DNA of 55,090 bases from Aromatoleum evansii. GTDB lineage: Bacteria; Pseudomonadota; Gammaproteobacteria; Burkholderiales; Rhodocyclaceae. Both the position numbers and the translations under genes were made by a program. The notes beneath the pieces were generated by a model, which did no database searches, was not told where the DNA came from, and saw nothing but the letters and a program-made list of their open reading frames with translations. The stretch is taken from positions 1-55,090 of the forward strand of contig NZ_WTVK01000039.1 in assembly GCF_012910805.1 (NCBI RefSeq), in the 5' to 3' direction. Numbering within the stretch: position 1 is the stretch's first letter; the number at the start of each line of letters is the position of its first letter. Shown here piece after piece: positions 37,716 through 51,626 of this stretch.

Positions 37716-40601
37716 TTACCGTTGAACGTCACCGTTTCGCTGCGGCGACACCGGGCGTTCTCCCGCCTTGTCGGCCGTGATTGCCGTGGCCCGTTCGTGT
37801 TGCCGGAGCGTTTCCACCGCACTGGTCTTGTCTTGCTTCGCCGCCACCGCCTTGGCCGCCACCGCCTTGTCGTTGGTGTAGATGCGCAGCTCATGCGAGG
37901 CGCGCGTGGCCCCGACATAGAAGCTCCGATCCCCGAAGACCTTGGCCATGTTCTCCAGCGCCCGCTCCTGCTTCTTCTCGCTCTCGGTCTGAGGCGCTCG
38001 GATGTGGAAGATGGCCCGGTGCTGAGTCGCGCCCTGGGAGGCGTGAACCGTCTGCGCGTAGGCATGATCCCAATGCTTGTTGCGAGAGAGATCCACTTGG
38101 TGCAGTGACACATCCTTGCCTTGCTTCAGCTCCAGCGTCACCTTGTCCCCAGCCACAGCCGTGACGCGCGCCACCTCGCCGTTTTTGAACTCGCCTTCGT
38201 TTCGGGTGATACGGATCAGGTCGCCCTTGGCCAGCTCGCGGGTGTCGCGGTCGTACACCTCGATTTTGTTGTGCTTCTTCGGCTGCCATGCGATCACAGA
38301 GCCGTCTTCCTTCTGGAGCACCACAGTGCCATTGGGGGCATCCACGGCCGACACGCGCATGTATTCGCCCTTCTTGGCGTCGATCTGCTGGTAGTCCCGC
38401 CCGAAGCGCACCACGTCGCCGGCCTTGTAGTATTGCGCCTCCTTCTGCATGGCCCGCGTCCACCCCTTCGAGGTGTAGATTTCGCGCGTATCCTCGGAGC
38501 GCGACAGTTCGCCCTGCTCCTTCAGTCCCTCGCGCACGCCGGCATTGATGGCCCGCCTGTCTTCGTTATAGGCGGTAATGACGATGGTGCGCTCACGCTC
38601 TGCCTTGTCGAGCTTCAAGATGTCCTGCACTACGGCCGCCACCAGGCGGCCCTTGTCCTCCTCGGACTTCTCGGGAATTTCCCGGATCATTCCAGCCTTG
38701 TCCATGTACTCGAAGGCCCGCGCGTTGTTGGCCAGCTCCACTTGGGTGAGCCGCTGGCCGTCCCCCAGGTTGTCGCGGCCAGTGATGATGTCCACGGCTT
38801 GCTTCAGGTCGGCGGTCTTCTGGCGGTTGATTTCGGTCATGTACGCGGTTTCCATGCCGTCCCGCTGGGCCAGCTCGAAGGGCTTGCCGGCCTCTACACC
38901 CTGCAACTGGAGCGTGTCGCCCAGGTACACCACCTTGGCCCCGGCCTTTTCGGCCATGTGGTCGAGCTGGGCCTTCTGGCGCTGCGACAGGAAGGACGAT
39001 TCATCCACGATCCAGACTTCCGCCTTGCGCTGGAAGTCGGGTGCGTACTGCTTGGCAAACTCGATGTCCTTCTGTAGCTGCCGCTCCTTGATCTGGAACA
39101 TCGAGACGGTATCAGTAGCAATACCTGTCTCCCTGGCCAGCACCTTGCTGGCCGCCCCGGTCGGAGCCATGCCGCGCACCGTGTAGCCCTGCTCCTGCGC
39201 CATTTCGCGCACGCCTTTGAGCATAGTGGTCTTACCCGTCCCGGCAAGGCCCTGCACCGCCACGTAACGATCTTCAGTGGTCAGTACCTTGCTGATGGCC
39301 TCCTTCTGGCCTTCGCTGTATTTGAAGCCCTGCCGGCCCTCGGCCTGCGCGATCCGCGCTGCCACCGCTTCCGGCTCCATCATCTTCGGCGTCTGGCCCT
39401 TCTGTGCGCGCACTTGGTCGAGTGCCCACATTTCGCTGCCCAGCATCTTCTTGGTCGTGTAGTTGCCGTCAGGCAAGGCCACCAGATCACCATCCTTCTC
39501 CAGCTTGTCGAAGGCCCGCTTCACCTCCGATGCCGATACGCGCCCTGCCCCGTGCTCGATGGCCGCCGCCATGAGGTCGTTCTTGGATACCACGGCCTCG
39601 CGCTCGATCAGGTGTGCGGCCGCAAAGGACATCGCCTCGCGCCCGGTGAGCTTGTCAGCGCGCACCACACCACCTTGCGCCCGTTGCGCGTCGGCCTTGG
39701 CCTGGATGGCGTCGAAGTCGATCCCGATGTCTTTGGCTCGTTCCTTCCAGCTCCCGATCAAGGCTTCATGATCCACGTCCACCTTGCGCGCTCTGGTCTT
39801 CAGCGTGGCGTCTTCCTTCTGCTGCGCGCTGGCATCGTCGATGTCCACGCCCTTGGCTTTCAGCGCCGCCTCTATTTCTGCCCGGCGCTGGCTGAAGTGC
39901 TCGATCTGCTCGCGGGTGATACCGGCAATCTCGAAGTTGCCTTTCTCGTCGGTGCGGCGAATGTCGTAGCCCAGCGCCTGGAGCCGGTCGGCCAGCTCGG
40001 ACGTGTAGATGGCCCCGATAACGCGCTGGGCGTTGTAGATTTCTTCATTCGTCAGGGAGCGCCACTGCCCATCCTCCCGCTTGGTGGCGTTCATGATGAC
40101 GGCGTGCGTATGCGTCTGCGGGTCGAGGTCGCGGCTTGTGTTATGCCGGAACATGGCCACAGTCACGTTGCCGGTCTGTACCGCTTCGGTCTTCCCGTCC
40201 ACGGTTTGCCGCGTCCTGGCCAGCTCGGTTTCGATGTGGCTGAGTGCCTTCTTGACGGCCGCCTCATGCGCCTCCCGCACGTCCCGCTTGCCGTACACCT
40301 CGGCCATGAGAGAAACACTCTTGGGCGCGGAAAACGTCATGTCGGTGCCCGGCCGGTGCTCGCGTTCCTTCTCGCCGGTTTCCTCGTTCTTGACCCACTT
40401 GCCCAGCTCTTGGCCATCCACCTTTCCGTTCAACACCTCGAAGAAGGCTTGACGATCAATCTTGCCGGAAAGCCCAAGGTGCTCGGCCCCCTTGCCGAAC
40501 CACTCGGAATGCTCCAAGCCCTCGTCCTGGGTGTAGTAGTTGTCAGCGGAAAAGTAGTGCAGTGCCTGCCCGGCGCTGCCCACGTTGTTCATGCTAATCA
40601 T
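37716..40601 (-). CDS. traI: TraI/TrwC-type MOB-F relaxase-helicase
   Basis: The 961-residue product has an N-terminal TrwC relaxase domain: YYTQ tyrosines at about 22-23 and the three-His site in RHNTSRDLDPQTHTH (H153, H164, H166). A RecD-like helicase follows, with Walker A GLAGTGKT near 455. It nicks oriT, stays on the 5' end and unwinds the transferred strand. Its size is close to TrwC of R388 (966) and shorter than F TraI. The start ATG overlaps the stop of the DsbD-like gene, with GGAGG upstream. Confidence 0.95.
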   Translation of the reverse strand: MISMNNVGSAGQALHYFSADNYYTQDEGLEHSEWFGKGAEHLGLSGKIDRQAFFEVLNGKVDGQELGKWVKNEETGEKEREHRPGTDMTFSAPKSVSLMAEVYGKRDVREAHEAAVKKALSHIETELARTRQTVDGKTEAVQTGNVTVAMFRHNTSRDLDPQTHTHAVIMNATKREDGQWRSLTNEEIYNAQRVIGAIYTSELADRLQALGYDIRRTDEKGNFEIAGITREQIEHFSQRRAEIEAALKAKGVDIDDASAQQKEDATLKTRARKVDVDHEALIGSWKERAKDIGIDFDAIQAKADAQRAQGGVVRADKLTGREAMSFAAAHLIEREAVVSKNDLMAAAIEHGAGRVSASEVKRAFDKLEKDGDLVALPDGNYTTKKMLGSEMWALDQVRAQKGQTPKMMEPEAVAARIAQAEGRQGFKYSEGQKEAISKVLTTEDRYVAVQGLAGTGKTTMLKGVREMAQEQGYTVRGMAPTGAASKVLARETGIATDTVSMFQIKERQLQKDIEFAKQYAPDFQRKAEVWIVDESSFLSQRQKAQLDHMAEKAGAKVVYLGDTLQLQGVEAGKPFELAQRDGMETAYMTEINRQKTADLKQAVDIITGRDNLGDGQRLTQVELANNARAFEYMDKAGMIREIPEKSEEDKGRLVAAVVQDILKLDKAERERTIVITAYNEDRRAINAGVREGLKEQGELSRSEDTREIYTSKGWTRAMQKEAQYYKAGDVVRFGRDYQQIDAKKGEYMRVSAVDAPNGTVVLQKEDGSVIAWQPKKHNKIEVYDRDTRELAKGDLIRITRNEGEFKNGEVARVTAVAGDKVTLELKQGKDVSLHQVDLSRNKHWDHAYAQTVHASQGATQHRAIFHIRAPQTESEKKQERALENMAKVFGDRSFYVGATRASHELRIYTNDKAVAAKAVAAKQDKTSAVETLRQHERATAITADKAGERPVSPQRNGDVQR

Positions 40602-41053
40602 CCCTGTCTTCCTCCCATTGACGGCACGCTGAAAGCCTTGGTGATCGGTGCATAGCACACCCCCACAATCGCCGCGCAGCCCTGTGCCGTAGCCACCAGT
40701 TTGACGGCCTGATTGCCCCCAGCCAAGCGCACGCGCACCGCCACCCGCTCGGTGTAGTAGCGCATGTTCTGGCCCATCGCCTTGTCGAACTTTTCAAGCG
40801 GTGGCGGCAGCTCAACGCCGGCCACCGTCACGGCTGGGTTGTCCGTTTTGAAGCTGAAACGGTCGCGGTACAGGTGATAGCCCGGTGCGATGATGTACTC
40901 CAGCTCCACCACTCGCGCATCCACCCGGCGAGCCGACACCCGGAAGGCTTCATCAGGTTGCAGCAAGTCCGGCTCGGCCTGCACGGAAACGCAAAAAGCC
41001 GCCAAGCAGGCGGCCGCGACGGAATGTAGAAATGCCCGTCTCTGAGTTTTCAT
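40598..41053 (-). CDS. DsbD N-terminal-domain-like secreted protein
   Basis: The 151-residue product has a signal peptide (residues 1-27) and matches the N-terminal (alpha) domain of DsbD: PDEAFRVSARRVDARVVELEYIIAPGYHLYRDRF, then FDKAMGQNMRYYTERVAVRV and a Cys pair in AQGCAAIVGVCYAP. DsbD-alpha passes electrons to DsbC and similar proteins. The transmembrane part of DsbD is absent. Its place between traD and traI is unusual; it may recharge the plasmid DsbC or TraF. Confidence 0.8.
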   Translation of the reverse strand: MKTQRRAFLHSVAAACLAAFCVSVQAEPDLLQPDEAFRVSARRVDARVVELEYIIAPGYHLYRDRFSFKTDNPAVTVAGVELPPPLEKFDKAMGQNMRYYTERVAVRVRLAGGNQAVKLVATAQGCAAIVGVCYAPITKAFSVPSMGGRQG

Positions 41054-41064
41054 TCGGTATCCTC

Positions 41065-43062
41065 CTATAGCGCATCCGCCAGCGGGTTGGGCTTCTTGCC
41101 CTGGCCGGCTGATTTCGCATCTGCATCATCTTTCGCGCGCGAAACCTTCTCGGCTGGCTTGATGATTTCGCCGGTTGCCTTGTCGATCACATCGCCATTT
41201 TCGTTGCGCATAACCTCCACCGTAGCCGGCGCGTCCATATCGTCGTCATCCAACATGTCGCCTTGCTCCGGCGCGGCCGGCTGCTGAACTTCAGCGGCGG
41301 ACGGAGCGGGTGCCGGCGCTGCGGCCGCCGTGGTCGGCTTGAAGCTGATCGCAAAGCCGTCGCGCTCGATGAAGCCGTTGGCCTGTTTCTCTGTCGGCAC
41401 GTAACCATACTTGACGCGGGCAATGGGATAGTCGCCCGGAACCAGCAGATAGCCGGTCATATCGGGCAACGTCAAAATCTCCGATGTCAGCACAAGGTCG
41501 CGCATCTGTCGGCGCGCCATCACGCTCACGCCGTCACGCTGCGAGCTGAGGCCGTAGCTCAAGGTTTCATCCTTTTCATCCACCTCGGCCTGTCCCATCA
41601 ATTCGGCCAACAGCTTCGCCGCAGCTCCATCCGTCACACGCAGCAGCAGCTTCGTTTGGCACCCGGAAATGATCGTCTTGGCCAGATCGTGCCCGTAGAT
41701 TTCGTAGAGCTGGCTGAAGTCCTGCACGCCCAGCACCATGCACAAACCGTACTTCCGTGTGTTCGTCAGAGCCAGCTTCAGGATGTCGAGTTTTTGGAGT
41801 GTCGGCAGCTCGTCAATGCAAAACCAAAGCCGCTCGCGGTGGATCGGCTCCAAGTCAAGCACGGCCTTGATTGCCGTGTCGATCCACAACGACAGAACGG
41901 GCTTCAATGCCTCGCGCATCGCTTCCCGTGCTGTGATGAACATCCATGAATCGCCTTCTTCATGTACCCATTTTCGGATGGAGAACGATTCGCCCTCATC
42001 TGGCAAAAACCGGAAGGCTTCAAGCTGGTTCTGAACAGTCATCTTGAGTGACATCCCCGTGCGCTCGGTCGTGGGATCAACATAGGTTGCGCCCGCTGTC
42101 CCCTGCAACAATGCGTGCATGGCGTCCAGGTTGCTCTTGGCGATAGCGTTGTAGAGGTCGCGGTTCGTGCGGCGGCCCTCGCGCCCCAATACTGCAATCA
42201 CGTCCTTTAGCACCATCCGGCCCGCAAGCGCCCAAAATGGATCGGACTCGGCCGGATCGGGGATCAGGCCGTTCGCCATGTTGTCGAAGTGGTAGTCCTT
42301 GGCGATTTCGTTCCAGATGTTCCAGTTCGGGCTTCTGGAGTCCAGCGGGTTCATCAGGATGTCTTTGCCTTCACGGTAGAACGCCTGGGTGAACTCGCCG
42401 GTCGGGTCATACACGATCATCCGCTTGCCACGCGCCCGCACCTGTTTCATGAGTGCGAAAAACTGCTGTGACTTACCCGTACCCTGCGCGCCGGCAAACA
42501 GCGTATGCAGCGTCTCTGACTTCACGCGCATGGGCACGCCCGCAATCTCATAAGGGCTTGCCTCGTCGCGGTGTCGGATCAGTCGCGCAAGCTCCTTTCC
42601 TTCCACCAGCTTGGCCCCGCGCAGTTGGTTGTCCTGCATCCGTTCACGGCCATAGCCCCACCAGTACAAAGAGATCAGAAACACCACACCGATGGAAGTC
42701 AGCAAGCCGAACATGCCGCCGTTGCGCAGCTTTCGCCAAGCATCTTCGGCCATGTCGTCGGTCAGCAAGGCAACCTCGGAAACTTCCATCTTGCGCAGCT
42801 CGCCGTTGACGTTCAGCTCCATCTTTCCGGCCGTCATGTAGAGCGCATCCCGCGTGTGCGCCAAGACGTTCCGCTCCAGCGCGTACTTTTCGTCTGCGGT
42901 AGTCGCATTCCAGAAGTACGCCGTCGTGACTGCCAGACCGGCCAAGATGGAAATCAGCACAACCGTCCAGATGGCCACCACGAACAGCCTGGCTTGGTGC
43001 ATCCACAACTCGGCCCCACGGGAGAAGCTACCGGCGCTTCCCTTTTCCTCTCTCTTTGCCAT
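41065..43062 (-). CDS. traD: TraD/TrwB type IV coupling protein
   Basis: The 665-residue product has two N-terminal membrane helices (about 27-50 and 112-132), Walker A GAQGTGKS near 191 and Walker B FCIDELPT near 415. Family blocks such as DPTGEFTQAFYREGKDILMNPLD are present. It brings the relaxosome to the secretion channel. The C-terminal 90 residues are acidic and disordered. Palindrome P11 is read as VSRAK near the end. AAAGGAGG precedes the ATG. Confidence 0.94.
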   Translation of the reverse strand: MAKREEKGSAGSFSRGAELWMHQARLFVVAIWTVVLISILAGLAVTTAYFWNATTADEKYALERNVLAHTRDALYMTAGKMELNVNGELRKMEVSEVALLTDDMAEDAWRKLRNGGMFGLLTSIGVVFLISLYWWGYGRERMQDNQLRGAKLVEGKELARLIRHRDEASPYEIAGVPMRVKSETLHTLFAGAQGTGKSQQFFALMKQVRARGKRMIVYDPTGEFTQAFYREGKDILMNPLDSRSPNWNIWNEIAKDYHFDNMANGLIPDPAESDPFWALAGRMVLKDVIAVLGREGRRTNRDLYNAIAKSNLDAMHALLQGTAGATYVDPTTERTGMSLKMTVQNQLEAFRFLPDEGESFSIRKWVHEEGDSWMFITAREAMREALKPVLSLWIDTAIKAVLDLEPIHRERLWFCIDELPTLQKLDILKLALTNTRKYGLCMVLGVQDFSQLYEIYGHDLAKTIISGCQTKLLLRVTDGAAAKLLAELMGQAEVDEKDETLSYGLSSQRDGVSVMARRQMRDLVLTSEILTLPDMTGYLLVPGDYPIARVKYGYVPTEKQANGFIERDGFAISFKPTTAAAAPAPAPSAAEVQQPAAPEQGDMLDDDDMDAPATVEVMRNENGDVIDKATGEIIKPAEKVSRAKDDADAKSAGQGKKPNPLADAL
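41130..41145. repeat. Dispersed palindrome P11
   Basis: CTTTCGCGCGCGAAAC has an intact core; the last base breaks the outer pair. It lies in the disordered-tail region of traD. Confidence 0.85.
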
Positions 43063-43063
43063 T

Positions 43064-43441
43064 TCAGCCTCCTTTCACTCGCTTGAGCTTTGCCTTCGCC
43101 TTGTTCTGCGCTTCGTACAACTGCTGCACGTCACGCGCCTCAACAATCGCCGCCAGCATGTACTCCGCAGTGAAGACCGAAAGCCACAGTTCATCGGGAA
43201 TCTCGACCTTTCCGCCACCCTCCCCGCCAGCGCGGATTTCATCGAGAAGGCGGCGCAGCCGCTGCTCGATGTCTTGCACGTTTTCTGCGATCACGCCCTG
43301 CACCAGCGTTTGGCGCAAAAACTCGGAAATGCTGATTCCGTGCTCGTTTGCCTTGGTTCGATAGAACCCCGCCGTGTCCTCATCGAGTCGGATGTTGAAC
43401 CGCTCGGTTGGGCCTTTCCCTGTTCCTTTCGCTCTCGGCAT
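43064..43441 (-). CDS. RHH relaxosome accessory protein (TrwA/TraY-like position)
   Basis: The 125-residue product has an N-terminal ribbon-helix-helix (ERFNIRLDEDTAGFYRTKANEHGISISEFLRQTL, positions about 13-46) and a helical C-terminal part. By position next to oriT and before traD it corresponds to TrwA of R388 or TraY of F, which bind oriT and repress their own operon. It is the first gene of the DNA-processing operon. Confidence 0.82.
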   Translation of the reverse strand: MPRAKGTGKGPTERFNIRLDEDTAGFYRTKANEHGISISEFLRQTLVQGVIAENVQDIEQRLRRLLDEIRAGGEGGGKVEIPDELWLSVFTAEYMLAAIVEARDVQQLYEAQNKAKAKLKRVKGG

Positions 43442-43469
43442 TTTCCTTTACTCCATAAGGGTTTAGGCC

Positions 43470-43475
43470 ATTATA
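43470..43475 (-). promoter_or_regulatory. Promoter of the DNA-processing operon (extended -10)
   Basis: On the minus strand TGCTATAAT forms an extended -10 about 30 bp upstream of the RHH gene. The -35 position falls within the two direct repeats at 43479-43514, so the RHH protein could repress it by binding there. Confidence 0.65.
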
Positions 43476-43478
43476 GCA

Positions 43479-43514
43479 TTTTCGGTGTCGCCGCGTTGTC
43501 TTTTCGGTGTCGCC
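43479..43514. repeat. Two direct repeats in oriT, 22-bp period
   Basis: TTTTCGGTGTCGCC occurs at 43479-43492 and 43501-43514. The 22-bp period is about two helical turns, as expected for cooperative binding by an RHH accessory protein. Confidence 0.8.
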
Positions 43515-43643
43515 ACGCTAAAAGGCGCGCCACAGCGCGGCTTTTAGCACCGGCAACCATGTTGCGTGGTGTGTGACCGTTCTTCCGGGGCGCGGGGCTT
43601 GCCCTGCGAGCTGGAAGAACGGTGCCGTTCTCTCCCCCAGGCC

Positions 43644-43729
43644 CTAGTGGAAGAAAACCGCGCATTTGGTAAAATGCAGCCGATCAGGGACGCAGCACGT
43701 CCCGCCAGATCAGGCAGGTTTTCCACTAG
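43644..43729. other. Long inverted repeat enclosing a promoter-like sequence
   Basis: CTAGTGGAAgaaAACC (43644-43659) pairs with GGTTTTCCACTAG (43717-43729) apart from a 3-base insertion. Inside are TAAAAT (43670-43675), a GGGACG/CGTCCC hairpin and two GATCAGG repeats. It precedes the gene at 43754 and may be its regulated promoter or part of oriT. Confidence 0.6.
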
Positions 43730-43753
43730 AACCCACAACGCGAGGTAAGAGCC

Positions 43754-44074
43754 ATGAGTAGTGAAACGACGAATCCGAAGTCAGGCCGCAAGGCCAAGAC
43801 GCTGGATGAAGAAATCGCAGCACAACGCGAGAAGCTGCGGAAGCTGGAGGAACGACAGCGAGAGCAGCAGCGCAAGGAACGCGAGCGCAACCAGAAGGCA
43901 GTGATGGAACTCATCAAGACGGAACGGCTTGATGCGGTTCCATCTGATCTTTGGCGCGAAGCGATGCCAAAGATCAAGGCCCTTCTGGTAGTCGATGCAG
44001 CGAAACCGGCAGAGCCGGTGAAGCCTGTTCAGACTGCGCCTGAAGTAGCAGCGACGGCCGAGGCCAGCCAGTGA
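43754..44074 (+). CDS. Coiled-coil protein next to oriT, unknown function
   Basis: The 106-residue product is highly charged; residues 17-50 (TLDEEIAAQREKLRKLEER, then QREQQRKERERNQKAV) form a coiled coil. The tail is Pro/Ala-rich. GAGG lies upstream of the ATG. It is divergent from the relaxosome operon and is the first gene on the leading side of the predicted nick. A relaxosome or regulatory role is guessed from position. Confidence 0.7.
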   Translation: MSSETTNPKSGRKAKTLDEEIAAQREKLRKLEERQREQQRKERERNQKAVMELIKTERLDAVPSDLWREAMPKIKALLVVDAAKPAEPVKPVQTAPEVAATAEASQ

Positions 44075-44222
44075 GCGTTTTCCACAAATCCACAGGCCCC
44101 GGTGCCCTCGACCGGGGATACCCAAATATCCCAAAGGGAGAGGGTCGCGCCCGGTTTTCCACAAGAGACTTCTTGTGGAAAACCGGAAAAGCGCGAGGGC
44201 CTGTGGGGCTTGTGGGAAACGC
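44075..44222. other. Cloverleaf-like structured element, unit 1
   Basis: The outer arms GCGTTTTCCACAAATCC... (44075-44099) and ...GCTTGTGGGAAACGC (44197-44222) pair imperfectly over about 25 bp. Inside are hairpin A (CCCTC/GAGGG outside, GGGATA/TATCCC inside, 44105-44144) and hairpin B (CCGGTTTTCCACAAG/CTTGTGGAAAACCGG, 44151-44186). It begins right after the stop codon at 44074. TTTTCCACA occurs twice and is one base from the DnaA box TTATCCACA. Confidence 0.85.
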
Positions 44223-44350
44223 GGCGGTTGCAGGAGAGACGGCCCGGAGTCCAGAGGCGCGCCTTTGGTCGGCTCCCCTCACGGGGAGACGAAACGGGTG
44301 GGGTTGGTTTTTGACTCACCTAGGGGCAGAAGGCTGCAAGCAGCGGACGA

Positions 44351-44497
44351 GCGTTTTCCACAAATCCACAGGCCCCGTAGCCGTTGCCCGCGATACCTCA
44401 ATATCGCAAGAGGCAACGGTCGCGCCCGCTTTTCCACAAGAAACCTCTTGTGGGAAAGCGGATCAGCGCGAGGGCCTGTGGAGCTTGTGGGAAACGC
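44351..44497. other. Cloverleaf-like structured element, unit 2
   Basis: This is a diverged tandem copy of unit 1 in the same order. The outer arms are almost identical. Hairpin A is CCGTTGCC/GGCAACGG outside and GCGATA/TATCGC inside (44381-44419). Hairpin B is CCGCTTTTCCACAAG/CTTGTGGGAAAGCGG (44426-44461). Four base pairs differ from unit 1 on both sides so that pairing is kept. The DNA between the units (44223-44350) holds a CTCCCC/GGGGAG hairpin and no gene. Confidence 0.85.
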
Positions 44498-44520
44498 GGC
44501 GGTTGATAGTGGCACGGTCT

Positions 44521-44646
44521 AGCGCCCGGAGGGCGCAAGCGAAAGGGATGTGCAAGGCTGCGCAGCAGTCCCCGCAACGCGGGGATGAGCGCGAATGCGC
44601 GAACCTGGAGCAGCCCGGTCGGCCCGCAAAGCGGGACGATTCGCCC
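44521..44646. repeat. Repeat R3, copy 1 (126 bp)
   Basis: It matches 47976-48101 at 124 of 126 positions. It contains hairpins GCGCCC/GGGCGC and CCCCGC/GCGGGG. It directly precedes the small plus-strand gene at 44667. No gene is seen in it. Confidence 0.92.
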
Positions 44647-44666
44647 AACAACGGACGGTGAAGACG

Positions 44667-44888
44667 ATGGAGCAAAGCATCGGGAGCCAGGAGCTATACC
44701 AGCACCTGAAGACCCACGGACGCGCGGAAATTGACGGCTGGGCGATTAACGCGGACGGTGCGGAAATTTGGCTCACGAACCCCTACGGCATCGACGTGGG
44801 GTTCTACGCCAACAACGCGGAAGGATGCGCCGGCATCCTGGAGCGCATTTCAACTGACGATCACGAAAGGGAATGGGGCACGCTGTAG
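44667..44888 (+). CDS. Small acidic protein, unknown function
   Basis: The 73-residue product (MEQSIGSQELYQHLKTHGR...) is soluble and acidic, with a compact pattern (EIDGWAINADGAEIWLTNPYG, then IDVGFYANNAEGCAGILE). The ribosome site is weak. It is the last plus-strand gene of the leading region. A near-perfect hairpin at about 44954-44995 downstream could end its transcript. Confidence 0.55.
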   Translation: MEQSIGSQELYQHLKTHGRAEIDGWAINADGAEIWLTNPYGIDVGFYANNAEGCAGILERISTDDHEREWGTL

Positions 44889-45523
44889 TGCTGCCATTCA
44901 GAATTCAAGGCAACCGACACACGCCACGGAACGGGCGCGGTTGCGTGACAAGGAAAGGCGAAGGTGACGGACGAAGGAAGTCGCCCTCGCCTTTCGCACT
45001 TTCCGGCCCTGCGTGACGCGGCACAAGCGCGGAACGAAACAGCAGGACGGAAAGCGGGAGAAGGCGCAAGGCGAACCGCTGCGAAGCAAGGGAAGCCGTA
45101 TTGCGCCTCCCCGACTTTCGCGTGCGAAAGTTGTACAAAACCGGCAGCGGAGCGGACGGGCCGGGACGGCCGCCGAATGGCGGCAGCGGGAACCGCGACG
45201 GCCCGGCGACACGAAGCAGAATGGCAACGGTAGCAGCCTACGGGGCGAGAAGTGGAAAGCCTAGAAGCGATAGCGAATAGGCGATCACCAACTGCGAGCC
45301 AGGCCGCGCATTGCGTGGCCTGCGTCTTTCGCGGCGATCCAGATCAAAAGCCGCGAGAAAGGCATACGGCAAGGATGGTGGTCGGCCGAAGGCTGGCCAC
45401 CATCGAGCCAGTGCAAGCGGAGAGGTTGCCGGCCTGAGTTCAGGCGAAGCTGGAACGAAAGACCGGCAAGGAAGCGGAGCGGGAAAACCGGATTGGCACG
45501 GTTGGGCCGAAGGGCCAGCCGTG
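44889..45523. other. Gene-free, hairpin-rich region
   Basis: No convincing gene is seen in 635 bp. It holds a 15-bp imperfect hairpin (AAAGGCGA...TCGCCTTT, 44954-44995), palindrome P12, a hairpin with arms ATGGTGG and CCACCAT (45374-45402) and the terminator at 45488. Purine-rich stretches separate them. It could hold a small RNA or an origin element. Confidence 0.6.
45115..45130. repeat. Dispersed palindrome P12 (variant)
   Basis: CTTTCGCGTGCGAAAG lies in non-coding DNA; the centre is GT. Confidence 0.85.
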
Positions 45524-49540: not shown

Positions 49541-51517
49541 TTAGGCGGTCAGGGTGAAAAGGGCGGTATTTACGGCGGTGCCGGATTCCGCGAAGGTATC
49601 GGGGGGCAGGCTCTCCCATTCGCCGCCGTGCTGCTCCACCAGCGGGCGGAGCTGGTCATTCTGGCGGGGGCCGTTGGCGCAGATCGCTACCAGCTTGCCG
49701 CCCGGCTTCAGGAAGCGCAGCGCGTGGCGGATGTGCTTGATGTCGTCGGCGTTGGCAAAGGGTGGATTCATCAGAATGCGGTCGAACGATCCCCACAGGG
49801 TTTCGGGCGTGCATTGCAGGAAGTCACCGATCACCACGGCGCGGCGGTCTGCATCGAGGCGGCCGCCCAAGGCCGCGTTAATCTCCACGGCCACCACTTC
49901 GCAGCCCTCGGGCAACTGCTCCAGAATCCGGCCGGTGCCGGCGCTCGGCTCCAGCACGCGCATTCCCGGTTCGATGTCGGCCAGCTCAACCATGCGCGCG
50001 GCCAGATCGGCCGGGGTCGGGAAAAGTTGCGGGACGCTCACAACCTGCACGCCAGCCTTGAGCTGGTCGCGCATGGCTTGGAAGTCCTCGGCCATCGCGG
50101 CGCGGTTGTCGGCGCTCTCGGTGCTGGCCGGGGCCTGCTCGGCCGTCACCGGGGCCGGGGCCACGGGTTCGCGCTCGAATTTCACCGGCTCGGCGGCCTC
50201 GGGCGCGGGCTTGTCCACGCGCTTGGCGTCGGTGATGTAAACCTGCACGATCCGATAGCCGCTATTGGCCAAAAAGGCGGTGCGGTAGCGGTACGCGCCA
50301 TGCTCGGCCGTGGCTTGCGCGGTGCGGGTGCCCTTGTAGTCGGCGGGCTTGCGCTTATATTCCTCGGCGGTCATTTCGATGAAGCCTTCACCGGGGAAAT
50401 TCACCAGCGGCGGCAGCTTGGCGGCCTTCTTGACCTTGGCGGCGTCTTCCTCGGTCGGCGCGCGGTAGTCCTTGATTTCCTCAATGCCGCGCACGCGCAC
50501 ATAACGGGCGTTCGTGGTCACGCTGTTGATCTGGCCGCCCTTCTTGTTGACGCGCATCACCACCAGCCATTCACCATCAACCAGGACGCGGCCGCCCGGC
50601 TGGATGTCGAAGCCCTCGGCCTTCAGGCCGCCTTGCTCGTCCAGCATGGCGCGCTCGTAGGCAATCCGGTTTTCATAGTGGGCAATCCAGCGGTCACAGT
50701 GGGCAACCGTGGCCGGGTAGGTCTTCTTGGCGGCCTCGATCACTTCGGCCAGGGTGCGCGGCGCGTAGAGGTTCGGATGCGAGCCGTTCAAGGCGTCGTA
50801 AGCGGTCGGGGTGTGGCTCCAGTCTTCGCGGTCGCCTTCCTTGCGCGGCAAGTGCAGCCAGCACATGCCAGCGATGCGCAGGGCCACGGCCTTTTGCAGC
50901 TCGGCGTCTCGCTCGGCCTCGCATTCAAGCCACAGCTTCAGCCACATTTCGGCCTCTTGCTTGCTGCGCTCCTGCTTGCGCTTGTCGGCCTCCAGCCCCT
51001 TGATGCGGCGATGACGGACGGCGGGCAGCTCCTTGTATTTCGCATGACGCAGGGCACCGGCTGCGCGCTGCTTCCAGTATTCGGAGGTTTCCCACATCTG
51101 CACGGCACGGCGCATCCCGTTTTCCATGCGCTCGGCGTCCTTGCGGGCCTTGCGTTCGCTGTGATGGCCCACAAGGATGGGTTGCCCGAACTCGAACCGC
51201 TGCCCGATGGCCTGCACGGCGTTGCGCGCTGCGCTGGCGTCATGGGCGCGCTTGTCGCTGTAGTCCTCGAAGCGGTCGGCGCGCTCCTCGGCGCGCTCAA
51301 CTAGGCCCGTGTCCTCGTCGCCAATCTCGCCGCACAGCTCCATCAGGAGGTCTTCGCGGGCCGGCGTCCACATGGGGGCCACGAAAAGCTCTTGACGGGG
51401 TGCCCACTTGAAGCCGGCCGCCTTCACGCGCTCATAAGTCGCGCTGTCCAGTCGTGAGGACGGATAAAGGCGCAGCTTGTTGTCTTCGGGGGAATAGGTG
51501 GCGGTCAGCGTTTGCAT
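49541..51517 (-). CDS. DUF3560 protein with C-terminal adenine-methyltransferase-like domain
   Basis: The 658-residue product begins with a DUF3560-type region (LTATYSPEDNKLRLYPSSRL, FKWAPRQELFVAPMWTPARE) and a long charged helical middle. The C-terminus (about 500-658) is a class I methyltransferase: SAM motif VLEPSAGTGRILEQL and catalytic NPPF near 583. Methylation of incoming DNA could protect the plasmid from host restriction. The start at ATG 51517 has AAGGA upstream. The promoter block R2 copy 1 lies about 110 bp upstream. Confidence 0.82.
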   Translation of the reverse strand: MQTLTATYSPEDNKLRLYPSSRLDSATYERVKAAGFKWAPRQELFVAPMWTPAREDLLMELCGEIGDEDTGLVERAEERADRFEDYSDKRAHDASAARNAVQAIGQRFEFGQPILVGHHSERKARKDAERMENGMRRAVQMWETSEYWKQRAAGALRHAKYKELPAVRHRRIKGLEADKRKQERSKQEAEMWLKLWLECEAERDAELQKAVALRIAGMCWLHLPRKEGDREDWSHTPTAYDALNGSHPNLYAPRTLAEVIEAAKKTYPATVAHCDRWIAHYENRIAYERAMLDEQGGLKAEGFDIQPGGRVLVDGEWLVVMRVNKKGGQINSVTTNARYVRVRGIEEIKDYRAPTEEDAAKVKKAAKLPPLVNFPGEGFIEMTAEEYKRKPADYKGTRTAQATAEHGAYRYRTAFLANSGYRIVQVYITDAKRVDKPAPEAAEPVKFEREPVAPAPVTAEQAPASTESADNRAAMAEDFQAMRDQLKAGVQVVSVPQLFPTPADLAARMVELADIEPGMRVLEPSAGTGRILEQLPEGCEVVAVEINAALGGRLDADRRAVVIGDFLQCTPETLWGSFDRILMNPPFANADDIKHIRHALRFLKPGGKLVAICANGPRQNDQLRPLVEQHGGEWESLPPDTFAESGTAVNTALFTLTA

Positions 51518-51626
51518 GGTCGTTTTCCTTATGCGGAAGGGTTGAAGATGGTCTAAGCGGCTGGGGTCTGGTCTGCTCACCGTCACCCCTGCCGGGGCAT
51601 CGCCTCATCACTGAAGCAATGCCTAC

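What the first reader, a model, noticed from the sequence alone, without database searches (positions are those of the whole stretch)
44075..44497. Tandem cloverleaf-like elements beside oriT, with compensatory base-pair changes
Two units of 148 and 147 bp repeat in tandem just past the predicted nick. Each has an outer stem (GCGTTTTCCACAA... with ...TTGTGGGAAACGC) and two inner hairpins. The units have diverged, but four stem pairs changed on both sides: C107-G142 to G383-C417, C109-G140 to T385-A415, G116-C131 to C391-G406, G154-C183 to C429-G458 (add 44,000). Such covariation is strong evidence that the fold itself is selected. The units enter the recipient first as single strand, so they may be a priming site, a single-strand promoter, an RNA, or an origin with DnaA-like TTTTCCACA boxes. 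I know of no named element with this plan.
Basis: partly seen in the sequence, partly recalled or inferred. Interest (0 to 1): 0.9.

Follow-up and report, generated by a model that had tools for sequence, protein, structure and literature searches.

The report
Folded DNA start-site beside transfer origin
Just inside the end of a plasmid that enters a new cell first, as a single DNA strand, lies a selected cloverleaf fold carrying a motif like the binding site of the replication starter DnaA; the same stem turns up in single-stranded DNA phages, so it is probably where copying of the incoming strand begins.

Summary
Two units (44075-44222, 44351-44497) fold far better than shuffles (z about -11), and the four named base-pair swaps are present. 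Across 42 distinct relatives, 40 of 59 pairs change on both sides and 95.5% of cells pair. G·T pairs outnumber A·C 110 to 6, so the + strand folds; an F-like nic motif suggests this is the transferred strand. Relatives lie beside oriT in MOBF/MPF_F plasmids of Betaproteobacteria; a compact form does so in an Edwardsiella F-type plasmid. Compact-stem patterns hit eight viral contigs, all ssDNA phages (7 microviruses, 1 inovirus), on the coding strand each time.

Best reading: a single-strand initiation site on incoming DNA, probably a DnaA-box hairpin like the "A-site" of the ABC primosome. The inner-stem box TTNTNCACA (36 of 42) stays nearly fixed while its flanks covary. It does not resemble Frpo: no promoter hexamers, no model match in F's leading region. 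DnaA binding and priming are inferred, not shown; none of the eight phages has an exact DnaA box.

The parts
43563..43575 (+). nic-like motif TGCGTGGTGTGTG of the origin of transfer (inferred; F nic sequence recalled)
   Evidence: single match, none in shuffles; F counterpart on the strand that leads into F's leading region; same strand and 357-554 nt before the element in 24 of 36 loci, other strand in 0 of 36
43754..44074 (+). small gene (106 aa, possibly coiled coil) between nic motif and first unit; neighbour, not shown to be part of the element
   Evidence: weak Pfam match below cut-off; relatives in 42 plasmid records
44075..44222 (+). unit 1: cloverleaf-like element (outer stem and two hairpins)
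   Evidence: fold z -11.4; covariance model 167.6 bits
44078..44086 (+). DnaA-like box TTTTCCACA in the outer stem of unit 1 (8 of 9 to TTATCCACA); core TCCACAAATCCACAG runs 44081-44095
44151..44186 (+). inner hairpin of unit 1, with box TTTTCCACA at 44155-44163
44351..44497 (+). unit 2: cloverleaf-like element
   Evidence: fold z -11.7; covariance model 166.6 bits
44354..44362 (+). DnaA-like box TTTTCCACA in the outer stem of unit 2
44426..44461 (+). inner hairpin of unit 2, with box TTTTCCACA at 44430-44438

Best explanation
The units are single-strand initiation (ssi) sites on the transferred strand. As that strand enters the recipient 5' end first, these units, about 500 nt from its end, fold (that the + strand folds is supported by covariation and the G.T bias). 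Recipient DnaA then binds the box in the hairpin stems and loads DnaB from DnaB-DnaC; DnaB travels 5' to 3' along the incoming strand while DnaG lays primers, turning it into duplex (inferred, by analogy with the ABC primosome). Once the DNA is duplex the fold is gone and the site is off. I put the general claim (a start site for complementary-strand synthesis) at about 0.7 and the DnaA-specific mechanism at about 0.5; the confidence given is for the specific claim.
For: Fold under selection: 40 of 59 pairs with changes on both sides, 388 such cells against 116 in shuffles, slid controls pair 37-46%. Folded strand: G.T 110 against A.C 6, + strand more stable in 41 of 42 sequences, one tie. Place: nic-like motif on the same strand 357-554 nt upstream in 24 of 36 loci, 0 of 36 on the other; 20 of 24 oriT-side loci have one or two strong hits, 32 of 32 on the same strand. 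Box: inner hairpin fits TTNTNCACA in 36 of 42; 10 double-changed cells in its eight positions other than the third, 96 in the seven flanking pairs. Exact TTATCCACA, with the first three bases not asked for, in 6 of 7 structured elements outside Betaproteobacteria and in both stems of B. cepacia L032; a Pectobacterium relative keeps the box on both arms while the second repeat has changed. ssDNA phages: 8 of 8 viral contigs, motif strand = coding strand in 8 of 8. DnaA-box hairpins load DnaB on ssDNA in vitro (PMC6127211, passages).
Against: No binding or priming was tested. Only 22 of 42 inner boxes fit the stricter TT(A/T)TNCACA; 14 have G at position 3. The eight phage elements have 1-3 mismatches to TTATCCACA, none exact. 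The conserved outer core (about 15 nt) is longer than a DnaA box. The compact forms lack the boxed inner hairpin. L207's motif strand is not the more stable one. Two Massilia loci lack the element and two Mycetohabitans loci have only about 20 bits. The phage motif letters were imposed by the search patterns.
Confidence: 0.5

Rival explanations
1. A start site for complementary-strand synthesis read by another host factor (PriA primosome, DnaG directly, or an unknown protein that reads the TCCACAWATCCAYRG core with its mismatches).
For: The outer core is longer than a DnaA box and includes recurrent mismatched pairs, T.G or T.T at one place and A.T or G.G at another; phage copies have weak DnaA boxes.
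Against: The inner-hairpin box is nearly fixed at DnaA positions while its flanks covary; exact TTATCCACA recurs unasked in distant lineages.
Confidence: 0.2
2. An Frpo-type single-strand promoter: RNA polymerase starts on the folded strand, for a primer or for leading genes.
For: Leading region of an F-type plasmid; Frpo is also a folded element of the transferred strand (PMC9849209 and PMC11541004, passages).
Against: No sigma-70-like site in 43450-45000 (only 0.3 expected by chance, so weak evidence). The model does not match F's leading region at E 0.1. RNA made on this strand would run towards the nic, away from the leading genes of the - strand.
Confidence: 0.12
3. A structured + strand RNA (for example a 3' region of the transcript of the small gene, or a small RNA).
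For: G.T pairs on the + strand fit RNA equally well; a + strand gene ends at unit 1.
Against: In four loci (L015, L019-L021) both units lie before that gene, not after it; no Rfam match; occurrence in ssDNA phages. No expression data were available.
Confidence: 0.1
4. A duplex-DNA site: vegetative origin, resolvase or partition site, with the inverted repeats read as double strand.
For: DnaA-like boxes are typical of duplex origins; a resolvase gene lies about 1 kb away.
Against: Duplex recognition needs no compensatory changes between distant arms and gives no strand bias of wobble pairs. An annotated replication initiator lies about 17 kb away in the near-identical plasmid L001.
Confidence: 0.05

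Closest known systems
A-site of the ABC primosome (DnaA-box hairpin on ssDNA; Masai, Nomura and Arai 1990 and Masai and Arai 1995, seen only as cited in PMC6127211)
   Same: A DnaA-type box in the stem of a hairpin on single-stranded DNA.
   Different: That assay uses a single box hairpin in M13 ssDNA (PMC6127211, passages). Here there is a roughly 150-nt cloverleaf with box-like motifs in two stems, once or twice per plasmid, next to oriT. Priming not tested; the R6K record was not held.
Frpo / ssiD of F and ssi2, ssi3 of ColIb-P9
   Same: Folded element of the transferred strand in the leading region, thought to act while the DNA is single-stranded.
   Different: Frpo rebuilds -35 and -10 boxes (PMC9849209, passages); none found here, and the model has no match in F's leading region.
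sso1 of ICEBs1 (PMC4595007, abstract and section 20)
   Same: Single-strand origin just downstream of oriT on the transferred strand, helping acquisition by transconjugants.
   Different: Found by similarity to a Bacillus rolling-circle plasmid sso; no sequence comparison was made here.

Membership tests
ABC-primosome A-site | DnaA box inside a hairpin stem | tested here: met
   inner hairpin 8 of 9 to TTATCCACA in both window units; 36 of 42 relatives fit TTNTNCACA, 22 of 42 TT(A/T)TNCACA (consensus recalled)
ABC-primosome A-site | acts on the strand that becomes single-stranded | tested here: inconclusive
   folded strand = strand of the nic-like motif; the nic is inferred
ABC-primosome A-site | DnaA-, DnaB-, DnaC- and primase-dependent synthesis | not testable with these tools
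   needs the in vitro assay
Frpo / ssi single-strand promoter | -35 and -10 hexamers rebuilt in the fold | tested here: not met
   0 sigma-70-like sites in 43450-45000 on either strand; 0.3 expected by chance; other promoter types not covered, pairing across the fold not modelled
Frpo / ssi single-strand promoter | similarity to F Frpo | tested here: not met
   model R1 has no match at E 0.1 in F 45000-69000; the reverse search with Frpo was not run
Frpo / ssi single-strand promoter | drives leading genes on the transferred strand | tested here: not met
   leading genes are - strand at higher coordinates; RNA from the unit would run away from them
Rfam families (release 15) | score above a family's gathering cut-off | tested here: not met
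   0 matches in the window; 9 weak matches with E up to 1 in 43400-45000, all below gathering

The most novel reading that the evidence does not exclude
Conjugative plasmids, integrated elements, microviruses and inoviruses share one folded single-strand origin, by exchange or convergence, read by the host initiator DnaA; DnaA, known as the starter of chromosome replication, would then also start second-strand synthesis on incoming single-stranded DNA.
Probability: 0.35. Interest if true: 0.88.

Novelty: new variant of a known kind. Interest (0 to 1): 0.74.

Why it matters
How a transferred strand is first primed in the recipient has been worked out for few plasmids, best known through RNA polymerase at Frpo. 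A folded site with a DnaA-like box beside the nic would be another route, would tie establishment to the recipient's own initiator, and could be tested at once with the existing ABC-primosome assay. The same stem in two kinds of ssDNA phage suggests a shared answer to the same problem.

Tried and rejected
Rfam, both thresholds: nothing credible. The long-gap pattern gave 0 viral contigs. Blast of two compact elements against named phages: no match, and three weak matches to unrelated phages. The Brenneria element has no match in plasmids or E. coli genomes, the Methylococcaceae element none in plasmids. The model found 4 of 399 genomes of the order, one of them the window's own; of the other three I examined genes in one, which has a Rep_trans initiator and an integrase but no coat or Zot match among the proteins scanned, so I call it an integrated rolling-circle element and not a proven inovirus. 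Integron attC-like folding was considered from memory and not tested. Searches for a published description; listings and passages only, in a library without most subscription papers; no description of this element was seen. The original Masai and Nomura papers were not looked up.

Full report
What is there. The window is a contig of a conjugative plasmid: TrwC-type relaxase at 37716-40658, TrwB-type coupling protein at 41065-43062 and a NikA-like protein at 43064-43441, all on the - strand, and 99.4% identical over 25 kb to a MOBF/MPF_F plasmid of Acidovorax carolinensis. Beyond a nic-like motif at 43563-43575 comes one small + strand gene and then two units of 148 and 147 bp separated by 128 bp. 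Both fold with z near -11.

The fold is selected. Nine relatives gave 23 of 59 pairs with changes on both sides. A covariance model found 32 hits of at least 74 bits in 20 of 24 loci (window and L001-L023), all 32 on the same strand; two units in 12 loci, one in 8. Two Mycetohabitans loci gave about 20 bits and two Massilia loci nothing at E 1. Adding 16 loci of a genome scan gave 55 hits, 42 distinct: 40 of 59 pairs change on both sides, 388 cells, 95.5% paired; slid controls pair 37-46%. The alignment was fitted to the model, which leans towards the structure, and the sequences are related, but the shuffle control (116 cells on average, 0 of 500 as high) is far below.

Which strand. G·T pairs on the + strand number 110 and A·C pairs 6, in 16 and 5 columns; 52 of the 110 come from two columns. 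The + strand is more stable than its complement in 41 of 42 sequences, with one tie. The nic-like motif lies on the same strand 357-554 nt before the element in 24 of 36 loci and on the other strand in none; 12 loci show no motif, some because the locus ends nearby. The F counterpart lies on the strand that leads into F's leading region (that F transfers this strand is recalled). So the folded strand is very probably the one that enters the recipient.

The box. The inner hairpin fits TTNTNCACA in 36 of 42 distinct units; six depart from it, among them Methylococcaceae L034, which has no box there. 22 of 42 fit the stricter TT(A/T)TNCACA (the DnaA consensus as I recall it) and 14 have G at position 3. 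The eight positions other than the third have 10 double-changed cells in all; the seven flanking stem pairs have 96 (rank test P 0.0007, on positions chosen after seeing the sequences). One-sided G·T changes do occur at position 4. B. cepacia L032 reads exact TTATCCACA in outer and inner stems. The outer stem has the longer core TCCACAWATCCAYRG with recurrent mismatches: T·T in 10 of 42 at one pair, and G·G in 23 of 42 where others have A·T (18) at another. I cannot explain that alternation.

Where else. A genome scan with the core and its closing arm found 24 stretches: 16 with strong model hits, 6 compact elements in Enterobacterales (model E 5e-6 to 0.04), and 2 chromosomal clusters of DnaA boxes without a comparable stem (L052, L053). 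The three bases before the core were not asked for, yet 6 of the 7 structured elements outside Betaproteobacteria read exact TTATCCACA. Edwardsiella L041 matches 20 Edwardsiella plasmid records and one of Pectobacterium; in the one Edwardsiella record opened, the element lies between the SLT gene beside traM and a metallopeptidase gene, first in the leading region. The Pectobacterium relative keeps TTATCCACA on both arms although its second repeat has changed. L037 and L045 carry TraG_N, L037 and L049 an integrase; L039 and L043 were not examined for genes.

Phages. Three viral scans with compact patterns gave 8 distinct contigs: 7 hold a microvirus major capsid gene (with a profile built from four of them; those four confirmed independently with PHROGs) and 1 is an inovirus with pIV and Zot-like genes. 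In all 8 the motif strand is the coding strand, which for these phages is the virion strand (recalled). One scrambled-arm control gave 1 contig, without the fold or a capsid gene. The share of ssDNA phages in the collection was not measured; as a rough guide 0 of 141 other viral loci had the capsid gene, though large contigs were held only in part. The element is rare among viral contigs, and the phage boxes have 1-3 mismatches to TTATCCACA.

How it most likely works. A site that must fold as a single strand, sits where the strand enters, carries a DnaA-like box and recurs in ssDNA phages is best read as a place where second-strand synthesis starts. The ABC primosome gives a ready mechanism: DnaA binds a box hairpin on SSB-coated DNA and loads DnaB (PMC6127211, passages). 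DnaB moving 5' to 3' from near the 5' end would follow the incoming strand (direction recalled). Shown here: fold, strand, place, box conservation, phage association. Inferred: DnaA binding, helicase loading, priming.

Compared with what is known. Frpo (PMC9849209 and PMC11541004, passages) is a folded promoter upstream of leading genes; this element shows no promoter hexamers (a test of low power), has no match in F's leading region or in R388 by the model, and RNA from it would run away from the leading genes. sso1 of ICEBs1 also lies downstream of oriT (PMC4595007, abstract and section 20). The natural A-site of R6K could not be compared. Reviews read in passages describe Frpo/ssi priming by RNA polymerase (PMC7690428; PMC7736820). 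I call this a new variant of a known kind: a single-strand initiation site with a plan and spread not seen in the searches made.

Noticed in passing
window 44515-44650: A second structured stretch just past unit 2 (fold z -3.8); part of it (44544-44617) matches two Variovorax records at 83-86%, and by eye it is kept in B. savannae L002.
   Followed up: partly
L003 8160-8800; L004 8290-8780; L013 2040-2700: Long hairpin-rich repeats near oriT in relatives: about seven copies by eye in L003 just past the units, others in L004 and in Massilia L013, which lacks the element.
   Followed up: no
viral contigs: Palindromic exact DnaA boxes (TTATCCACA, 4-34 nt, TGTGGATAA) occur in at least 120 viral contigs against 21 for one scramble; spacings look helically phased by eye.
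   Followed up: partly
L052 6968-7092; L053 4800-5050: Chromosomal clusters of DnaA boxes (5 and 7 with at most one mismatch in the stretch listed) in Pontibacter and Paenibacillus, not beside dnaA among the genes checked.
   Followed up: partly
window 49541-51586: Leading-region gene joining a DUF3560 domain to a methyltransferase-like part.
   Followed up: no
L011 and L012, 3323-3449: Apparently decayed units in Mycetohabitans plasmids, about 20 bits, first TCCACA lost in L011.
   Followed up: partly
outer stem, columns 22/147 of alignment A3: One pair alternates between A.T (18) and a G.G mismatch (23) in 42 distinct units; the G.G form also appears in several phage stems by eye. No explanation found.
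   Followed up: no
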